In this document: piece after piece, positions 3,995 through 12,173 of the stretch
Layout of the letters: each line of letters begins with the position of its first letter
Numbering within the stretch: the stretch's first letter is position 1
From: Solirubrobacter pauli
Lineage (GTDB): Bacteria > Actinomycetota > Thermoleophilia > Solirubrobacterales > Solirubrobacteraceae
DNA: 64,000 nt
Direction of reading: 5' to 3'
NCBI RefSeq assembly: GCF_003633755.1
Contig: NZ_RBIL01000001.1
Location: forward strand, 1 to 64,000
Notes under the pieces: model-generated
Seen by the model: the letters and a program-made list of their open reading frames with translations, nothing else
Told to the model about the DNA's origin: nothing
Database searches by the model: none
Position numbers and translations under genes: made by a program

Positions 3995-4327
3995 GTGCAG
4001 AGCATGCTCGAGATCAGGTCGCCCTCGAACGGGACCGGCTGGGCCGATCACTGGACGTTCAGCGGAGCAGACGACCGCCTCCTCCGCGCCTGCCTGGAGG
4101 AGCTTGCGGAGTACGTGACGGAGCCACCGGTCACGAAGGCCGATCGCTGGCGTGCCGCGATGCTGTTCACGGATGACGAGAACGCGCTGCGGCTGGGACT
4201 GGGCGCTGCTCCGAGCAGCGACATCCGAGCTTGGACGTCGGATGGGGCGCTGCAGCTCGCCGAGATCCTGCCTGAACGGCTTTCATCCGTGCGCGACGCG
4301 ATCATTCAGCGGTTCGCTCAGACGTAA
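3995..4327 (+). CDS. Hypothetical protein
   Basis: 110 residues from GTG 3995; ATG 4004 is an alternative start. It is mostly alpha-helical and acidic, with LRACLEELAEYV, DRWRAAMLFTDDENALRLGLG and LAEILPERLSSVRDAIIQRF, and no membrane segment or metal motif. Amino-acid composition looks like a genuine soluble protein. No family recognised. It is flanked on both sides by the same 16-bp sequence and sits in an otherwise decayed region, so it may be passenger DNA. Confidence 0.45.
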   Translation: MQSMLEIRSPSNGTGWADHWTFSGADDRLLRACLEELAEYVTEPPVTKADRWRAAMLFTDDENALRLGLGAAPSSDIRAWTSDGALQLAEILPERLSSVRDAIIQRFAQT

Positions 4328-4774: not shown

Positions 4775-5788
4775 CTAGTCGCGAAGCGAGCCGATGCCCA
4801 GCGAGGAATCGGCGGGCGGCTGCGCAGCGGCCGCCGGCGGCTCGGCCAGCGCCTCGAGCATGGCGACGGTGGGCACGAAGAACGTGGACCCCGTGAGCGC
4901 GGTCGAGAAGTCCAGCAGCCGGTCGTAGGCGCCCTCGGGCACGCCGACGAACATGCGCTCGAGCATCTGCTCGATCACCCACAGGCGGCCGGCGTAGCCG
5001 ATGAAGTAGGTGCCGAACTCCCCCGCGCCGGGGCGGCCGAACGGCATGTTGTCGCGCAGGATCGCGAGCTCGCCGCCGGTTTCGTCCTCGATCGTCGCGA
5101 GGGACTTGTGGGAGAGCTGGGGCGCGCCGTCGTCGTCGAGCTCGATGTTGTCGAGCTTCGTGCGGCCCATGATCGCCTCTTGGCGCTCGGTGGACAGGGC
5201 GGCCCAGCCGGCCATATCGTGGACGTACTTCTGGACGACGACGTAGCTGCCGCCCGCGAAGTCGCCGTCCGCGATCAGGGCTGCTTCCGGGAGCTCGGCC
5301 CCGACCGGGTTCGCGGTGCCGTCGACGAAGCCGAGCAGGTCGCGCGCATCGAAGTAGCGGAAGCCGACCGTCTCGTCGATGACGCGCGCCGCGTCGCCGA
5401 TCTGGTCGAGCAGCTGGCGCTCGAGCTCGAAAGTCATGTCCTCGCGCTCCGCGCGGAGGTGGAAGAGCAGGTCGCCCGGCGTGGACGGCGCGCTGTGGAC
5501 CGGGCCGCGGATCGGCGTGAAGGGGTGCAGCTCCGCGGGCCGTGCGCCCGGCGAGAGGCGGTCCCACAACTCGGCGCCGATGCCGACCACGCACGACAGC
5601 CGGCCGCCCAGGTCGCGGAAGCCGACGTTCTTGACGAGGTCGCCGACCGCGCCGAGGACCTCGCGGATCTGCGCGAGCGCGGCTTCGCCTTCGCGCACCT
5701 CCAGCACGAGGAAGACGGCCGCGCGCGAGAGCGGGGCGTCGACGCTCTGCGCCTCGATCGGGACACGTTCCCACGCTCGCTGGTCCAT
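4775..5788 (-). CDS. Dye-decolorising (DyP-type) heme peroxidase with encapsulin cargo tag
   Basis: 337 residues from ATG 5788; a minus-strand TACGAT box 6 nt upstream supports this start over longer forms. It belongs to the YfeX/DyP class of heme peroxidases, which use H2O2 to oxidise phenolics and dyes. The hallmark GFVDGT (153-158, distal Asp) is present. The likely proximal heme ligand is His227 (QLSHKSLA) and the distal Arg is Arg245 (ILRDNMPFG). The tail after residue ~315 is an Ala/Pro-rich linker ending in SSLGIGSLRD, a textbook encapsulin cargo-loading peptide. The shell gene is at 7895-8704, so this enzyme is predicted to be packaged inside the nanocompartment. Adjacent to, and divergent from, the hydrolase gene. 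Confidence 0.93.
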   Translation of the reverse strand: MDQRAWERVPIEAQSVDAPLSRAAVFLVLEVREGEAALAQIREVLGAVGDLVKNVGFRDLGGRLSCVVGIGAELWDRLSPGARPAELHPFTPIRGPVHSAPSTPGDLLFHLRAEREDMTFELERQLLDQIGDAARVIDETVGFRYFDARDLLGFVDGTANPVGAELPEAALIADGDFAGGSYVVVQKYVHDMAGWAALSTERQEAIMGRTKLDNIELDDDGAPQLSHKSLATIEDETGGELAILRDNMPFGRPGAGEFGTYFIGYAGRLWVIEQMLERMFVGVPEGAYDRLLDFSTALTGSTFFVPTVAMLEALAEPPAAAAQPPADSSLGIGSLRD

Positions 5789-5794
5789 GCCGCG

Positions 5795-5800
5795 ATCGTA
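5795..5800 (-). promoter_or_regulatory. TACGAT -10-like box for the DyP peroxidase
   Basis: Minus-strand TACGAT ends 6 nt before ATG 5788, consistent with a leaderless transcript. Confidence 0.5.
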
Positions 5801-5841
5801 TTGGGCCGATGAGTTTCGGGGCGGCCGGGCGTCCTGGCGGT

Positions 5842-6702
5842 ATGAAGACAACGCACGTCCTCCAGCACGCGCAGGCCGAGATCACGTACGACGTCCATGG
5901 TCCACTCCCCGCCGAGGACGGACGGCCACCGCTGCTGATGATCGGGCAGCCGATGGACGCGAGCGGGTTCCGCGCGCTGGCGGCGCGGTTCGCCGACCGC
6001 ACCGTGATCACCTACGACCCGCGCGGGATGGGCCGCAGCACGCGCCACGACGGGCGCGTGGACGCGTCCCCGGAGGTGCAGGCCGAGGACGTGCACGCGG
6101 TGATCGAGGCCGTCGGCGGGCCGGTCGACCTGTTCGCGAGCAGCGGCGGCGCGGTCACGGCGCTGGCGCTCGTCGCGGCGTACCCGGACGACGTCGTCAC
6201 GCTCGTCGCGCACGAGCCTCCGCTGATCGACATGCTGGCCGACAAGGAGGCCGCGCGGCAGGCCACCGACGCCGTCGAGCAGACCTATCAGGCCAAGGGC
6301 TGGGGCCACGGCATGGCGGCGTTCATCACGCTGACCTCCTGGCAGGGCGAGTACACCGAGGCGTACTTCGCCCAGCCCGCGCCGGACCCGGCGATGTTCG
6401 GCATGCCGACCGAGGACGACGGCACGCGCGACGACCCGCTGCTCACCGACCGCGGCGCCGCGATCCGGGACTACCACCCCGACCGGGACGCGCTGGCGGC
6501 CGCGCAGACGCGGATCGTGATCGCCGTCGGCGAGGAGTCGCGCGCGACCTTCACCGGCCGCACGGCCGACGGCACCGCCGCCTTCCTCGGGCTGCGCGCC
6601 ACGGTGTTCCCCAGCCACCACGGCGGCTTCCTCGACGGGGAGTTCGGGTGGGCCGGCCAGCCCGACGCGTTCGCGGCCAAGCTGCGCGAGGTGCTCGGAT
6701 GA
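5842..6702 (+). CDS. Alpha/beta-fold hydrolase
   Basis: 286 residues from ATG 5842. It has the alpha/beta hydrolase layout: an oxyanion strand (LLMIGQPMDASGF), YDPRGMGRS near 58-66, a nucleophile elbow ASSGG with Ser101, and a C-terminal catalytic His in FPSHHGGF followed by FLDGEFG. An acidic residue is expected after strand 6 (VIAVGEES). The substrate is not predictable. Close relatives in actinobacteria are often labelled haloperoxidase- or lactonase-like, but no cofactor site is visible. Divergent from the encapsulin-tagged peroxidase and followed after 15 bp by the MFS gene. Confidence 0.8.
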   Translation: MKTTHVLQHAQAEITYDVHGPLPAEDGRPPLLMIGQPMDASGFRALAARFADRTVITYDPRGMGRSTRHDGRVDASPEVQAEDVHAVIEAVGGPVDLFASSGGAVTALALVAAYPDDVVTLVAHEPPLIDMLADKEAARQATDAVEQTYQAKGWGHGMAAFITLTSWQGEYTEAYFAQPAPDPAMFGMPTEDDGTRDDPLLTDRGAAIRDYHPDRDALAAAQTRIVIAVGEESRATFTGRTADGTAAFLGLRATVFPSHHGGFLDGEFGWAGQPDAFAAKLREVLG

Positions 6703-6704
6703 GC

Positions 6705-6710
6705 TAGCGT
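6705..6710 (+). promoter_or_regulatory. TAGCGT -10-like box for the MFS gene
   Basis: TAGCGT ends 7 nt before ATG 6718, suggesting the MFS gene has its own leaderless promoter just after the hydrolase stop. Confidence 0.45.
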
Positions 6711-6717
6711 CATACGT

Positions 6718-7950
6718 ATGAAGGCGGGCGTTGGCCGCTACAAGGCGCTCCTGGCGATCCGCGGTGCTCGCGCGCCGCTGGTGTTCTCGACCGCCGGCTC
6801 GATGCCGATCGGCATGTACACGCTCGCGATCCTGCTGCTCGCGCGCGACGCGGGCGGGTCGTTCGGGGAGGCCGGGCGTGTGGTCGGCGCGTTCAGCCTG
6901 GCGAACGCGTTCGGCGCGGTCGCGCAAGGCCGGTTGATGGACCGGTTCGGCCAGACGCGCGTGCTCCGGCTCGCCGCCGTCGGCCACCTGCCGGCGTTGA
7001 TCGCGCTGGTGCTGGCCGCACGCTCGGAGGAGTCGGCGTGGGTGCTCGCGGGGATCGCCGTGTGCGGCGGACTGACGCTGCCGCAGCTCCCGGCCGCGAT
7101 GCGCTCGCTGTGGAACCACCTCGTGCCGGACGCCGGACTGCGCGCCACCGCGTACGCGCTCGTGGCGGTCGTCTTCGAGGTGGCGGTCGTGACGGCGCCG
7201 GCGCTCGTGGCCGGGATCGTCGCCCTCGCCTCGCCGGCGGTCGCCGTGGTGCTGGCCGGCGCGCTTGGCTCCGGCTCGGCGCTCGCGTTCACCGCGACCC
7301 GGGCGTCGCGCGGCTGGCGCGGTGCGCCGCACGACATCGGCTGGCTCGGGCCGCTCGTCGCGCCCGGGATGCGCACGGTGATCGGCGTGCTGGCGCTGTT
7401 CGGGGTGGGCGTCGGGATCGTGCAGGTCGCGGTGCCCGCGTTCGCCGACGAGCAGGGCTCGGCCGCCACCGGGGGTGTCCTGCTCGCGGCGCTGTCGGCC
7501 GGCAGCCTCGCCGGCGGGCTCGTCTACGGGCTGCGGACGTGGCCGGGCACGTCCGCGCACCGGCTGACCGCGCTGCTGCTCATGCTCGGCGCCGCCTTCG
7601 CGCTGCTCTCGATCGCGAGCAGCTACGTGCTGCTCGCGCTGCTGCTCGTCCTGTGCGGGCTGCTGGTCGCGCCGACCGCGGTGGTCGGCTCGACCCTGCT
7701 GGACACCGTCGCGCCGGCCGGTACCGTCACCGAGGCCTTCGCGGCCATGGTCATGGGGATCGTCGCCGGCAACGCGGTCGGCAACGCGCTCGGCGGCAGC
7801 GTCGTCGAGTCGGTGTCCTACGAGGCGGCCGCGCTCGCCGCGGGCGCGGTCGCCGTGACGGGCGCGCTGCTCGCCCTCGCCCGCGGGCGCACGCTCAGCT
7901 CGGCGGCACCAGCGAGCACGCCGCCTCCGGCGTCGTCACCCGGAAGCTGA
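6718..7950 (+). CDS. MFS transporter
   Basis: 410 residues with about 12 hydrophobic segments, a cytoplasmic loop with GRLMDRFGQTRVLR between TM2 and TM3 (the MFS signature GxLaDrxGrr), and internal pseudo-symmetry of two six-helix halves. It resembles the drug/sugar efflux MFS members of actinobacteria; the substrate is unknown. The last ~18 codons (Ala/Pro/Ser-rich) run antisense into the end of the encapsulin gene, a 56-bp convergent overlap. Confidence 0.85.
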   Translation: MKAGVGRYKALLAIRGARAPLVFSTAGSMPIGMYTLAILLLARDAGGSFGEAGRVVGAFSLANAFGAVAQGRLMDRFGQTRVLRLAAVGHLPALIALVLAARSEESAWVLAGIAVCGGLTLPQLPAAMRSLWNHLVPDAGLRATAYALVAVVFEVAVVTAPALVAGIVALASPAVAVVLAGALGSGSALAFTATRASRGWRGAPHDIGWLGPLVAPGMRTVIGVLALFGVGVGIVQVAVPAFADEQGSAATGGVLLAALSAGSLAGGLVYGLRTWPGTSAHRLTALLLMLGAAFALLSIASSYVLLALLLVLCGLLVAPTAVVGSTLLDTVAPAGTVTEAFAAMVMGIVAGNAVGNALGGSVVESVSYEAAALAAGAVAVTGALLALARGRTLSSAAPASTPPPASSPGS

Positions 7951-8704
7951 AGCTCTCCTCGAGGTAGAGGTAGACCGACTGCGCGTCGTGATGGCTGTAG
8001 CCGATCGACAGGTCCTGCCCGGACTCGAACAGGAAGTCGCCGCCGCGCAGGGAGACGACGACCGCGCTGTCGACGCCGGGCGCCCAGACGATCGGGCCGC
8101 CCTGGAGGATCTTGCGCAGATGGTCGAACAGCAGGTAGCCGCCGTGCTCCGTGCTCTGGACGACGCCCGTGTACTGCTCGGGCGCGAGGGCGAGCGCGTA
8201 CGGGCCCTTGATGCCGTTGCGAAGGAGCGTCTCGACCGCCTCGGCGACGTGCCGCGTGTAGGCGTTGAAGTCGCCGGACAGGGCGATCGCGTCGTGCGTG
8301 CAGGACTCCGCGATGCCCTTGAAGCCCGCCGCCGCCCAGCCGTGGAACACGGCGCGGTTCTCCGCCCGGGCCATCCGCCGGGCGGCCTGCTCGAGCGGCT
8401 CGAGGTCGATGTCCTCGGCCCCGCGCTCGAGGTCGGCGAGCTCCGCACGCGAGAGCGCGAAGTCCACGCGCATCTCGACCAGCGGGAGCACGCGCCGGCG
8501 TGCGCTCGTGAGCCCGTCGGCGCCGTCCGGCAGCGGCTCGATCCGGCCGAGGTTGGTGGCGCTGTAGTCCCAGCCCAGCGGGCCGGAGAAGTCGACGACC
8601 TTGCGGGCCGCCAGGCCCGGCTCCAGGCGCGTCCGCGCCTCCTCGTCGAGCTCCGCCCACCCCTCGTCGGTGATCGGCGCACGCTCGCGCAGCAGATGGT
8701 TCAC
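7895..8704 (-). CDS. enc: Family 1 encapsulin shell protein
   Basis: 269 residues, the usual size for the HK97-fold shell protein of the linocin/CFP29 group. Diagnostic segments are the N-terminus LLRERAPITDEGWAELDEEA, then KVVDFSGPLGWDYSATNLGR, the middle VFHGWAAAGFKGI, and the C-terminal E-loop/A-domain strands with QDLSIGYSHHD and VYLYLEESFSFRV. The N-terminal helix and the P-domain groove normally bind the LGIGSLK cargo tag, and two proteins here carry that tag. The start is GTG 8704, which overlaps the ferritin stop (GTGA), so shell and cargo are translationally coupled. It self-assembles into an icosahedral cage in the cytoplasm. Confidence 0.95.
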   Translation of the reverse strand: MNHLLRERAPITDEGWAELDEEARTRLEPGLAARKVVDFSGPLGWDYSATNLGRIEPLPDGADGLTSARRRVLPLVEMRVDFALSRAELADLERGAEDIDLEPLEQAARRMARAENRAVFHGWAAAGFKGIAESCTHDAIALSGDFNAYTRHVAEAVETLLRNGIKGPYALALAPEQYTGVVQSTEHGGYLLFDHLRKILQGGPIVWAPGVDSAVVVSLRGGDFLFESGQDLSIGYSHHDAQSVYLYLEESFSFRVTTPEAACSLVPPS

Positions 8705-9084
8705 AGCCCGGCCCCCTTCAAGCTCCCGATGCCCAACGACCCCGGCTGGCCTCCGCCACCCGATCCACCCAGGCCGGCGCCCTCCTCGGCCTCCTCGCCC
8801 GCCTCCACGATGTCACCCTCCTGGAAGAGGACGCCGCGCGCGATCTCGCGCCACACCGGCGTGCGCCGGAGCAGGAACTCCAGGTCCATCGCGAAGTGCT
8901 TGAACTCCTCCGTCTGCGCGTTGCGCATGACCGCGAGCGCCTCCGGGTCCTGCTCGACCGCCAGCCGCTGCTCATACCAGCCGATCGCCTCGGCCTCCTC
9001 GGTCAGCGAAGCGCACAGGCGGGCAAACGTTCGGGTCCGCGCCGGCAGCTCCTCGGGCGGCTCGTGGTACTGGTCGAAGCCCAT
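8701..9084 (-). CDS. Encapsulated ferritin-like cargo (EncFtn)
   Basis: 127 residues from ATG 9084. A two-helix ferritin-like protein: helix 1 has EEAEAIGWYEQR and helix 2 has AQTEEFKHFAMDLEFLLRR. The pattern of Glu32, Glu60 and His63 matches the iron ligands of encapsulated ferritins, which form the ferroxidase centre at a subunit interface. After an acidic, then Gly-rich linker (about 94-115) the protein ends in GSLGIGSLKGAGL, the encapsulin targeting peptide. It oxidises Fe(II) inside the shell, which stores the mineral. First gene of a two-gene operon with the shell protein; the long form upstream of ATG 9084 is not protein-like. Confidence 0.93.
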   Translation of the reverse strand: MGFDQYHEPPEELPARTRTFARLCASLTEEAEAIGWYEQRLAVEQDPEALAVMRNAQTEEFKHFAMDLEFLLRRTPVWREIARGVLFQEGDIVEAGEEAEEGAGLGGSGGGGQPGSLGIGSLKGAGL

Positions 9085-9091
9085 GCTCGGC

Positions 9092-9097
9092 ACAGTA
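9092..9097 (-). promoter_or_regulatory. TACTGT -10-like box for the EncFtn-encapsulin operon
   Basis: Minus-strand TACTGT ends 7 nt before ATG 9084. The intergenic region to the divergent Crp/Fnr gene (9085-9166) is the likely control region for both. Confidence 0.5.
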
Positions 9098-9166
9098 CGG
9101 CACGAGGGGTCGGGCCGCGGCGCCGGTGGACAACCGCCGCGAGCGGGACTATTTTTCACGCCCGAG

Positions 9167-9970
9167 GTGACCGGGGTGACGGAGCCATCTCGATTCGGCG
9201 GAGCGCGGCGCGGAGTGCGGCTGCTCGAGCATGATCCCGAGCTGGGGCAGTTGCTGGACGCGCAGCGGCGGGAGCAGGCGACGCACGAGCTGATCGCGCA
9301 CGTCACCGCGGTCGAGGTCGGCGAGTGGGACGGCGCGCGGCTCGCGGACGTCGATCCGCGCAACCTCGGGCTGATCGTGCTGGAAGGCGTGCTAGCGCGC
9401 GAGGTCGTGCTCGAGGAGTTCGTCAGCACCGAGCTGCTCGGCGCCGGGGACATCATCCGCCCGTGGCCGCTGGACCCCGAGCCGTCGCTGCTCCCCGTGC
9501 AGACGCGCTGGAACGCGCTGTCGCCGGCGCGTCTGGCGCTGCTTGACCAACGCGCGGCCGCCGTCATCGCGCGCTACCCGGAGATCAACGCCGTGATCGT
9601 CGACCGGCTGATCGCCCGCTCCCGGCGGCTGGCGATCGAGCAGGCGATCTCGCAGATGAAGCGCGTAGACGATCGGATGTTGGCGCTGTTCTGGCATCTC
9701 GCCGAGCGCTTCGGCCGCGTCGTGCCCGACGGCGTGCAGGTGCCGCTGGTGCTGTCGCACCGGCTGGTCGGCGAGCTCGTCGGCGCGACCCGGCCGTCGG
9801 TCTCCACGGCGCTCGCCGAGCTGACCGCGCGGGGCGAGCTCACACGGCGCGACGACGGCACCTGGCTGCTCCTCGGGCACCCTCCCGCGGTACCGGACGT
9901 GCCGGGGCCGGAGCTGATCCGCCAGCGCCGGCGGCTGACGCCGGCCCGCGCGCAGGGAGCGTCCGGCTAG
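9167..9970 (+). CDS. Crp/Fnr-family transcription regulator
   Basis: 267 residues from GTG 9167 (GTG 9176 is an alternative); a TATTTT lies 11 nt upstream. The N-terminal cyclic-nucleotide-binding-type beta-barrel is divergent and lacks obvious cAMP-contact residues or an Fe-S Cys cluster (it has no Cys). A long dimerisation helix (AIEQAISQMKRVDDRMLALFWHLAERFG) follows, then a clear Crp winged helix (LSHRLVGELVGATRPSVSTALAELTARGEL). Divergent from the encapsulated-ferritin operon with 82 bp between starts, so it is the obvious candidate regulator of the nanocompartment. The inducing signal is unknown. Confidence 0.85.
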   Translation: MTGVTEPSRFGGARRGVRLLEHDPELGQLLDAQRREQATHELIAHVTAVEVGEWDGARLADVDPRNLGLIVLEGVLAREVVLEEFVSTELLGAGDIIRPWPLDPEPSLLPVQTRWNALSPARLALLDQRAAAVIARYPEINAVIVDRLIARSRRLAIEQAISQMKRVDDRMLALFWHLAERFGRVVPDGVQVPLVLSHRLVGELVGATRPSVSTALAELTARGELTRRDDGTWLLLGHPPAVPDVPGPELIRQRRRLTPARAQGASG

Positions 9971-11034
9971 CGGCGGTTCGCGGCGACGCCCTCGGTGCTC
10001 ACGAGGACGACGTCGTCGGTGGGCTTCAGGGGCAGCGGCGCGGCCTGCAGGCCGGCGAGGGACGCGGCGCCGCACGGGCCGGCGTGCAGGCCGGCGGCGG
10101 CGAGCGTCGACAGCGCCGCGCGGGTCTCCTCGTCGGTCACTCCGACGGCCGCGTCGAGGCCCGCGCGCACGGCCGGCCAGGCGAGCGTCGACACCGTGCC
10201 GCAGTTCAGGCCGGCCATGATCGTCGGTGTGCTGGTGTCGACCGAGATCGGGGCGCCGGTCGCCAGCGACGCCGTCACACACGCCGCCGTCGACGGCTCG
10301 ACCGCCAGCACGGCCGGCCGCTGCGTGCGGCCCGGCGCGCGGTAGTGCTCGAGCGCGGCTTGCAGGAGCGAGCCGACGCCGGTCGGGACGACGACGAGGT
10401 CGGGGCTGCGCGGGTGCTGCGCGTCGATCTCGGCGAACAGCGTCGTGTAGCCGCTGACGATCCAGCCCGGGACGTCCTCGTAGCCCGCCCACGCCGTGTC
10501 TTGGATCAGCAGCTCGCCGGTCCCCACGCTGTCGGTGGCGAGGCGCACGGCCTCGTCGTACACGACGTCCGTGTCCACCACCTCGGCGCCCTCGTCGCGG
10601 ATCGCCTGCAGCGTCGAGTCCGGGAGGCCGCCCGCGACGTAGATGCGGCTGGCGAGCTGCAGCCGGCTCGCGATGTACGCGAGTGCGCGGCCGTGGTTGC
10701 CGTCGGTGGCGGTGACCAGCGTCAGGCGCGCGGCCGCGGCCCGGTCCGCCAGCTCGGCGAACGTGGCGGACACGGGCACGCCGAGGTGCGCCGTGATCGC
10801 CCGGTTGGCGGCCCAGGACGCCCCGAGCACCTTGAAGGCGGGCAGGCCGAAGCGGTCGGACTCGTCCTTGACGCGGACACGCGCGACGCCAAGCCGTTGC
10901 GCGAGCTCGCCCGGCAGCTCGACGAGCGGCGTCGGCGCGTAGCCGGGGAGGCTGCGGTGGAACGCGAGCGCGGCGGCGTCGCGGGGCGGCGCCGTCCACT
11001 CGGAGGCGCGCGGGTTCGTGGCGGTCGGTCGCAT
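9967..11034 (-). CDS. PLP-dependent diaminopropionate ammonia-lyase-like enzyme
   Basis: 355 residues from ATG 11034. Fold type II PLP enzyme: the Schiff-base Lys lies in GLPAFKVLGASWA, the Asn-Gly phosphate loop in ATDGNHGRALAY, and the C-terminal glycine loop in GPCGAASLAGL. The extended insert with IQDTAWAGYEDVPGWIVSGY and the PTIMAGLNCG segment point to diaminopropionate ammonia-lyase (YgeX type), which converts 2,3-diaminopropionate to pyruvate and ammonia. It is coupled to the upstream M20 peptidase by a TGATG overlap, the same pairing as ygeX-ygeY of Escherichia coli. Its last codons overlap the end of the convergent Crp gene. Confidence 0.8.
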   Translation of the reverse strand: MRPTATNPRASEWTAPPRDAAALAFHRSLPGYAPTPLVELPGELAQRLGVARVRVKDESDRFGLPAFKVLGASWAANRAITAHLGVPVSATFAELADRAAAARLTLVTATDGNHGRALAYIASRLQLASRIYVAGGLPDSTLQAIRDEGAEVVDTDVVYDEAVRLATDSVGTGELLIQDTAWAGYEDVPGWIVSGYTTLFAEIDAQHPRSPDLVVVPTGVGSLLQAALEHYRAPGRTQRPAVLAVEPSTAACVTASLATGAPISVDTSTPTIMAGLNCGTVSTLAWPAVRAGLDAAVGVTDEETRAALSTLAAAGLHAGPCGAASLAGLQAAPLPLKPTDDVVLVSTEGVAANRR

Positions 11035-12173
11035 CAGGCGCAGAAGGTCGTCGCGATCCGGGTGAGCGTACGCGTCACGGCCTCCAGCGAGGCGACGCTG
11101 ACCCATTCCTCGAGCGCGTGCTCGCCCTCGCCGGTCGGGCCGAACAGCAGCGCCGGGATGCCGGCGGCGGCGATGAACGCGGCGTCCGTCCAGTACGGCG
11201 CGCCGGTCAGCGCGGGCGTCGCGCCGAGCTCGTGCGCGGCGGCGTCGCGGGTCAAGCCGACCAGCTCGTGCTCCGGGTCGATCGCGAACGGCTCGCGGCT
11301 GAGGCCGAGCGCGAACGACGCGCGCAGACCCGGCTGAGCGGCCGTGGCGCGTTCGAGCACCGCCTCGAGCTCGCGCGCGAGGGTCGCCTCGCCCTCCCCC
11401 GGCAGCGTGCGCCGCTCGACGGTGATCGCGCAGCGCCCGGGGTACGAGGACGCCTCGATGCCGCCGGAGATCGTGCCGGCGTGCACGGAGCCGCGACCGA
11501 GGACCGGATGCGGCTCGCGCCCGATCAGCTCCGCGTCCAGCGCGCCGAGCGCGGTGAGCACGGCGCCCGCGTGCACGATCGCGTCGACGCCGAGCTCGGG
11601 CCGCGAGCCGTGGGCCGCGAAGCCCTCGACGAGCACGTCGGCCCAGACGAAGCCCTTGTGGGCGACGATGATCGCCTCGCGGGTGGGCTCCGTGATGATC
11701 GCCGCGTCCGCGCGCACGTGCGTGAGCGCCTCCTGCACGCCGAGCGAGGCGTGCTCCTCGTCCGCCACGCACGCGACGACGACGTCGCCGGCGAGCCCGG
11801 CTGCAGCCGCGTCCCGCGCGGCGACGAGCGCCGCCGCCAGCCCCGCCTTCATGTCGCAGGTGCCGCGCCCGTAGAGGCGATCGCCGTCGCGCCTCGGGGT
11901 GTGCGGGGCGGTCATGCCGTCGACGCCGACCGTGTCGGTGTGGCCGCACAGCAGCAGCGTGCGTCCTCCCCCGCTCCCGCGCGCGGTGATGATCACCGAC
12001 GGCCGGCCCGGCGTCGCCTCCAGCACCTGCGCGTCCAGCCCGTTCTCGGCCGCCCAGCGGACGAGGAACCCGGCGATCTCGGCTTCCCCGGCACCGCCGG
12101 GGACCAGCGCGGGGTTCACGGAGTCGATGGCCACGAGCGCGGCGGTGAGGTCAGCGGCGGTCACGCGCACCAT
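11034..12173 (-). CDS. M20 family metallopeptidase (ArgE/DapE/YgeY type)
   Basis: 379 residues. Di-zinc M20 signature in order: LLCGHTDTVG (first metal His and Asp), YGRGTCDMKAG (bridging Asp), VADEEHASLG (catalytic Glu and metal Glu), ITEPTRE, and a C-terminal ligand in the LLFGPTGEGEHALEEWV segment (His). The lid-domain insert starts with KGFVWADVLVEGFAAHGS. It hydrolyses an amide or N-acyl amino-acid bond; the exact substrate is unknown. Upstream of and translationally coupled to the diaminopropionate ammonia-lyase-like gene, so it may release the amino acid that the lyase degrades. A TGATCAGATCA palindrome lies 16 bp upstream at 12189-12199. Confidence 0.85.
   Translation of the reverse strand: MVRVTAADLTAALVAIDSVNPALVPGGAGEAEIAGFLVRWAAENGLDAQVLEATPGRPSVIITARGSGGGRTLLLCGHTDTVGVDGMTAPHTPRRDGDRLYGRGTCDMKAGLAAALVAARDAAAAGLAGDVVVACVADEEHASLGVQEALTHVRADAAIITEPTREAIIVAHKGFVWADVLVEGFAAHGSRPELGVDAIVHAGAVLTALGALDAELIGREPHPVLGRGSVHAGTISGGIEASSYPGRCAITVERRTLPGEGEATLARELEAVLERATAAQPGLRASFALGLSREPFAIDPEHELVGLTRDAAAHELGATPALTGAPYWTDAAFIAAAGIPALLFGPTGEGEHALEEWVSVASLEAVTRTLTRIATTFCA

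What the first reader, a model, noticed from the sequence alone, without database searches (positions are those of the whole stretch)
4775..9970. Encapsulin locus with two tagged cargoes of different chemistry
Within 5 kb there are a shell gene, an encapsulated ferritin coupled to it, and a DyP peroxidase on its own ~2 kb away whose tail is SSLGIGSLRD. Both cargo tails carry LGIGSL, so one shell should house iron storage and H2O2-using peroxidase together. Encapsulins with one cargo are well known (EncFtn in Rhodospirillum; DyP in Brevibacterium/mycobacteria); pairing both at one actinobacterial locus could couple Fe(II) oxidation, which makes H2O2, to its removal.
Basis: partly seen in the sequence, partly recalled or inferred. 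Interest (0 to 1): 0.8.

Follow-up and report, generated by a model that had tools for sequence, protein, structure and literature searches.

The report
Encapsulin shell with two tagged cargoes
A soil actinobacterium carries one protein-shell gene and two enzymes, an iron-storing ferritin and a peroxidase, that bear the same shell-entry tag, and relatives suggest this two-cargo state is how the shell can change from ferritin to peroxidase cargo.

Summary
Window 7895-8704(-) is a family 1 encapsulin shell, translationally coupled to an EncFtn gene (8701-9084, tail GSLGIGSLKGAGL). A B-type DyP peroxidase (4775-5788, tail SSLGIGSLRD) lies 2.1 kb away, beyond two opposite-strand genes. The genome has one shell and one EncFtn, and its only two C-terminal LGIGSL tags are on these cargoes. 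The shell keeps the tag-binding residues mapped in Klebsiella. The close linkage is not conserved: a same-genus relative shares only the 1.19-kb EncFtn-shell unit and has no such DyP. Dual tagging does recur: EncFtn-shell operon plus a distant tagged DyP occurs in four other genomes. In 299 class genomes all 28 good shells have a linked EncFtn, a tagged DyP, or both; the three with no adjacent cargo all have a dispersed tagged DyP. Two of these keep the last codons of a deleted EncFtn beside the shell. So the DyP is most likely a real second cargo, and dual-cargo genomes look like intermediates of cargo replacement. Co-packaging in one particle and peroxide coupling remain inference; EncFtn and DyP are more often alternatives than partners. 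Core plus secondary cargo is already known; the EncFtn/DyP pairing and turnover evidence are new.

The parts
7895..8704 (-). Family 1 encapsulin shell, 269 aa, GTG start; R34, D38, D231 and L232 match the Klebsiella tag-binding residues R34, D38, D229, I230
   Evidence: residues from PMC10960027
8701..9084 (-). EncFtn (encapsulated ferritin-like protein), 127 aa, core cargo; stop overlaps the shell start
   Evidence: ferroxidase residues E30/Y37/E60/H63 and entry E29/E32 match R. rubrum E32/Y39/E62/H65 and E31/E34 (alignment; residue list)
8704..8742 (-). EncFtn C-terminal targeting peptide GSLGIGSLKGAGL
4775..5788 (-). B-type DyP peroxidase, 337 aa, second (unlinked) cargo; start ATG 5788 chosen, TTG 5851 possible
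4778..4807 (-). DyP C-terminal targeting peptide SSLGIGSLRD
   Evidence: same tag on the nearest orthologue in G270 (GGLGIGSLRD) although the linker has diverged
5809..6702 (+). Alpha/beta hydrolase between DyP and shell; bystander, orthologue on another contig in G232
6718..7950 (+). MFS transporter, 3' end overlaps the shell 3' end; bystander, orthologue on another contig in G232
9167..9970 (+). Divergent Crp-like regulator; not conserved next to EncFtn in relatives, so no regulatory role is claimed

Best explanation
The locus encodes one T=1-type family 1 encapsulin whose core cargo is EncFtn and whose secondary cargo is a B-type DyP peroxidase. Both carry the same LGIGSL(K/R) C-terminal peptide and so compete for the same pocket on the inner shell wall. 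EncFtn is made from the shell operon and oxidises Fe(II) for storage in the shell; DyP is made from its own gene and loads when expressed, reducing H2O2 with an unknown electron donor. The loading ratio would follow relative expression. Across the order the same shell lineage has carried EncFtn alone, both, or DyP alone, so the two-cargo genome is a functional and probably transitional state. Shown: genes, tags, single shell, conserved pocket residues, recurrence, nesting of DyP-cargo shells among EncFtn shells, fossil EncFtn ends. Inferred: actual loading, particle size, co-residence in one particle (about 0.5) and peroxide coupling (about 0.25).
For: One shell in the genome; only two C-terminal LGIGSL tags, on the two cargoes. 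Shell residues R34/D38/D231 conserved: R34 and D231 in 60 of 60 shells, D38 in 57, matching residues tested by mutagenesis in Klebsiella. In 299 class genomes, all 12 with a tagged DyP have a shell and none of the 15 with only an untagged DyP does. All 28 good shells have linked EncFtn, tagged DyP (12) or both (4: G000, G270, G208, G254); the three shells without adjacent cargo (G053, G286, G272) all have a dispersed tagged DyP. A fifth dual genome is the MAG of L161. Shell tree: the DyP-only shells G246, G252, G053, G286, G272 nest inside the EncFtn-shell clade (100/99), apart from the classic DyP-shell clade (100/100). G208 (dual) and G252 (DyP beside shell) fall together in the shell tree and are sisters in the DyP tree (94/86). 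G286 and G272 keep the last codons of EncFtn (...IGSMKGQGR) directly before the shell, at a site collinear with an intact EncFtn-shell locus (L147) on both sides.
Against: No expression, loading or structural data. Native M. tuberculosis and M. smegmatis shells held only DyP although other tagged candidates exist (PMC8635971, PMC8244302). EncFtn and DyP are more often alternatives than partners. The DyP gene is a separate transcription unit and is not conserved near the shell. Some dispersed DyP tags have drifted (G254 SLGIGNART, G272 SLGIGGRRD).
Confidence: 0.78

Rival explanations
1. Only EncFtn is loaded in the cell; the DyP tag is a relic of an ancestor or donor in which DyP was the core cargo, and the DyP now acts free in the cytosol.
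For: Tagged but unloaded candidates exist in native M. tuberculosis. DyP is not in the operon. G226, close to G270, has only a DyP remnant.
Against: The tag is unchanged from the G270 orthologue (67% identical) while the linker has diverged. Every genome in the class sample with a tagged DyP has a shell and none with only an untagged DyP does. DyP is the only detectable cargo of three shells of this lineage.
Confidence: 0.15
2. The shell makes two separate particle types, EncFtn-loaded and DyP-loaded, under different conditions, with no shared chemistry.
For: Separate transcription units; EncFtn is coupled to the shell while DyP is not; no DtxR-type box or shared inverted repeat found upstream.
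Against: Same tag and same pocket give no obvious means of sorting when both are expressed together; M. xanthus co-loads several cargoes (PMC8229669).
Confidence: 0.3
3. The 5-kb linkage is itself a functional cluster (DyP, hydrolase, MFS, shell, EncFtn, Crp regulator).
For: Proximity only.
Against: In same-genus G232 only 1.19 kb (EncFtn-shell) is shared at the shell locus; hydrolase, MFS and Crp orthologues lie on three other contigs and no close DyP is found. No named shell-linked EncFtn locus has DyP within the flank held, up to 10 kb.
Confidence: 0.05

Closest known systems
Myxococcus xanthus EncA with EncB, EncC and EncD
   Same: One shell, core cargo in the operon and tagged secondary cargoes encoded elsewhere; co-encapsulation shown (PMC8229669)
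   Different: EncB and EncC are ferritin-like proteins; the M. xanthus shell is T=3 and only distantly similar (E about 1e-11); no DyP
Mycobacterium tuberculosis Cfp29 with DyP, BfrB, FolB
   Same: Peroxidase and ferritin-type cargo tagged for one shell
   Different: There DyP is the core cargo and BfrB, a cage bacterioferritin, is encoded elsewhere; native shells held only DyP (PMC8635971). Here EncFtn is core and DyP secondary, and the shell is of the EncFtn lineage
Rhodospirillum rubrum and Haliangium ochraceum EncFtn encapsulins
   Same: EncFtn upstream of the shell, same tag (H. ochraceum GSLGIGSLR), nearest solved shells 9ry4 and 7odw
   Different: Different EncFtn subfamily (TIGR04535 below cut-off here); no DyP cargo reported in the papers read
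Classic actinobacterial DyP encapsulin operons
   Same: B-type DyP with a SLGIGSLK-type tag
   Different: There DyP is directly beside a shell of a separate clade

Membership tests
Family 1 encapsulin | Linocin_M18/HK97-fold shell matching the family 1 model | tested here: met
   NF041155 302 bits, cut-off 100
Family 1 encapsulin | Tag-binding residues on the inner wall (Klebsiella R34, D38, D229, I230) | tested here: met
   Window R34, D38, D231, L232 (Ile to Leu, common in the clade)
Family 1 encapsulin | Self-assembly into an icosahedral particle (T=1 expected) | not testable with these tools
   Nearest solved relatives include H. ochraceum and mycobacterial Cfp29 shells
EncFtn | EncFtn-like domain with ferroxidase and entry residues | tested here: met
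   PF22277 72.6 bits, cut-off 27; E30/Y37/E60/H63 and E29/E32 conserved
EncFtn | TIGR04535 subfamily cut-off (125 bits) | tested here: not met
   87 bits; belongs to the MGFDQYHEP subfamily, of which many members lack tag and shell
EncFtn | Decamer with ferroxidase activity | not testable with these tools
   none
B-type DyP peroxidase | DyP fold and conserved heme-pocket residues | tested here: met
   TIGR01413 270 bits; GFVDGT Asp, ILRDN Arg/Asn and the SH His align with R. jostii DypB (residue roles from general knowledge)
Secondary cargo | Targeting peptide on a protein encoded outside the core operon | tested here: met
   DyP tail SSLGIGSLRD; two opposite-strand genes separate it from the shell
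Secondary cargo | Found inside native particles | not testable with these tools
   none
Classic DyP encapsulin operon | DyP directly upstream of the shell, shell in the DyP clade | tested here: not met

The most novel reading that the evidence does not exclude
One nanocompartment natively co-packages a ferroxidase that can release H2O2 and a peroxidase that consumes it, and this two-cargo state is the route by which one encapsulin lineage switches from iron storage to peroxidase function.
Probability: 0.3. Interest if true: 0.7.

Novelty: new variant of a known kind. Interest (0 to 1): 0.5.

Why it matters
A published analysis reports that encapsulin shells cluster by cargo type, as if shell and cargo evolve as a unit (PMC6934571). 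Here one shell clade carries EncFtn, both, or DyP, with fossil EncFtn ends beside shells whose genomes now carry a tagged DyP. That makes cargo replacement through a shared tag directly testable, and gives candidate systems in which iron oxidation and peroxide use might share one compartment.

Tried and rejected
A conserved gene cluster (rejected: synteny lost within the genus). Chance tags (rejected). Further tagged cargoes in the genome (none convincing). A DtxR/IdeR-type box or a shared inverted repeat upstream of both cargo units (none). A hidden second cargo beside the shells of G053, G286 and G272: no intact EncFtn or tagged gene; G286 and G272 have the EncFtn tip, G053 nothing recognisable. 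Enrichment of EncFtn with DyP (not found: 4 observed, about 8.6 expected). The 2017 encapsulin survey was not held, so I cannot exclude that it lists an EncFtn core with a DyP secondary cargo.

Full report
OBSERVATION. On the minus strand EncFtn (9084-8701) and the shell (8704-7895) overlap stop-to-start, so they are translationally coupled. The shell matches the family 1 encapsulin model at E 3e-90 and EncFtn matches PF22277 at E 2e-20. DyP (5788-4775) is a B-type enzyme closest to R. jostii DypB. It is separated from the shell by an alpha/beta hydrolase and an MFS gene on the plus strand, so it is not part of the shell operon. EncFtn ends GSLGIGSLKGAGL and DyP ends SSLGIGSLRD. In the 7.1-Mb genome there is one shell, one EncFtn, and five matches to an LGIGSL DNA pattern, of which only these two are C-terminal. 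A looser pattern added no convincing tagged gene.

THE PARTS LOOK FUNCTIONAL. EncFtn keeps the ferroxidase residues of R. rubrum EncFtn (E30, Y37, E60, H63 for E32, Y39, E62, H65) and the entry pair E29/E32 (residue list in PMC5012862). DyP keeps the heme-pocket Asp, Arg, Asn and His by alignment to DypB. Klebsiella work shows that shell R34 and D229 are crucial for tag binding, I230 important and D38 less so, and that tag residues L, I and L fill three pockets (PMC10960027). The window shell has R34, D38, D231 and L232 at these places, and both cargo tags have the L-I-L pattern. The nearest solved shells include those of R. rubrum, H. ochraceum and the mycobacterial Cfp29; the M. xanthus shell is distant, so I expect a T=1 particle (inference).

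THE CLOSE LINKAGE IS NOT CONSERVED. In the same-genus genome G232 only 1.19 kb, exactly EncFtn plus shell, is shared at this site (88% identity); its surroundings are different, it has no such DyP, and the hydrolase, MFS and Crp-like orthologues lie on three other contigs. None of the named shell-linked EncFtn loci has DyP within the flank held, up to 10 kb. So the 5-kb proximity is probably incidental.

DUAL TAGGING IS REAL AND RECURS. In 299 genomes of the class I count 28 full-length shells. Twenty have a linked EncFtn, twelve genomes have a tagged DyP, four have both: G000, G270 (DyP tail GGLGIGSLRD), G208 (GSLGIGSLRSG) and G254 (GSLGIGNART). In the last three the DyP is on another contig. 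A fifth, the Solirubrobacterales MAG of L161, has DyP with GSLGIGSLKG; the other 17 named genomes with tagged EncFtn had none. Every one of the 28 shells is accounted for by EncFtn, DyP or both, and the three shells without adjacent cargo (G053, G286, G272) are in genomes with a dispersed tagged DyP. All 12 tagged-DyP genomes have a shell; none of the 15 genomes with only untagged DyP does. By simple counting that split has a chance of about 6e-8, but the untagged DyPs are a distant clade, so it is not an independent test. In 397 genomes of the phylum only the window genome had both a DyP at this threshold and a clear EncFtn.

SHELL AND CARGO HISTORIES. In a tree of 60 shells the classic DyP shells form one clade (100/100) and the window shell sits in a separate clade of EncFtn-type shells (100/99). 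Inside the latter lie five shells whose genomes have DyP and no intact EncFtn: G246 and G252 (DyP beside the shell) and G053, G286, G272 (DyP elsewhere). G208 (dual) and G252 fall in one supported shell group of four (99/90) and their DyPs are sisters (94/86). In G286 and G272 the bases just before the shell still spell the EncFtn end (IGSMKGQGR, stop overlapping the shell ATG), and the flanks on both sides are collinear at 80-89% identity with L147, a genome with intact EncFtn in the same place; an MFS gene and nearly all of EncFtn are missing. L147's genome has no such DyP. Conversely G226, close to dual G270, has only a DyP fragment. Loss has therefore gone both ways. The tree places L147 with G272 and G286 outside, and the break points differ, so two separate EncFtn losses are likely but not proven.

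MECHANISM. Most likely EncFtn is the core cargo, made from the shell operon, and DyP is a secondary cargo that uses the same pocket whenever it is made. I put about 0.78 on both being true cargoes of this shell, about 0.5 on their sharing one particle, and about 0.25 on peroxide from Fe(II) oxidation being used by DyP. Against coupling: EncFtn and DyP are more often alternatives than partners (4 together, about 8.6 expected if independent), DyP is a separate transcription unit, no shared regulatory element was found, and a review notes that H2O2 can itself serve as oxidant in the ferroxidase reaction. Native M. tuberculosis and M. smegmatis shells held only DyP although BfrB and FolB (M. tuberculosis) or BfrB (M. 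smegmatis) carry tags.

NOVELTY. Core plus secondary cargo on one shell is established, with up to four secondary cargoes reported in a genome (PMC8229669), and peroxidase plus ferritin on one shell was proposed for M. tuberculosis. The EncFtn-core/DyP-secondary pairing and the evidence for cargo replacement were not found in the papers I could read, but the main 2017 survey was not held. One published tree concludes that shell and cargo evolve as a unit with rare exceptions (PMC6934571); this clade is a clear exception. I rate it a new variant of a known kind.

RELATED: the EncFtn subfamily. The window EncFtn falls below the TIGR04535 cut-off and belongs to a subfamily marked by MGFDQYHEP. 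Across both EncFtn subfamilies retrieved, tag and shell go together in 50 loci and are both absent in 90, with few exceptions (some loci repeat). Short untagged forms (s-FLPs) are known (PMC11202242). The tagged members sit among untagged ones in the tree, but with only 93 columns the order of gain and loss is not resolved.

Noticed in passing
L178 10001-10369 (Mycolicibacillus trivialis): EncFtn with tail TLDVGSLKGQQQ and no shell within about 10 kb: possibly the mirror case, EncFtn as secondary cargo in a mycobacterium.
   Followed up: no
L151, L156, L160, L163-L169 and others: Untagged, shell-less EncFtn of the same subfamily (about 60-71% identity) in Bacteroidota, Pseudomonadota, Chloroflexota and Gemmatimonadota: free EncFtn is widespread.
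   Followed up: partly
L122 about 4130-4170 and L123 about 10500-10550: Fossil EncFtn C-terminal codons directly before the shell, where EncFtn and an MFS gene are deleted relative to L147.
   Followed up: yes
L116 and L117 (genome G053): Two tagged DyP genes on small contigs, both ending in SLGIGGLR plus two residues, in a genome with one shell and no EncFtn.
   Followed up: partly
L118 9803-10087 (genome G226): DyP remnant (about 95 residues, 68% identical) in an EncFtn-shell genome closely related to dual G270.
   Followed up: partly
window 9967-12173 (-): A PLP-dependent ammonia-lyase-like gene next to an M20-type peptidase/deacetylase gene, judged by eye from the translations.
   Followed up: no
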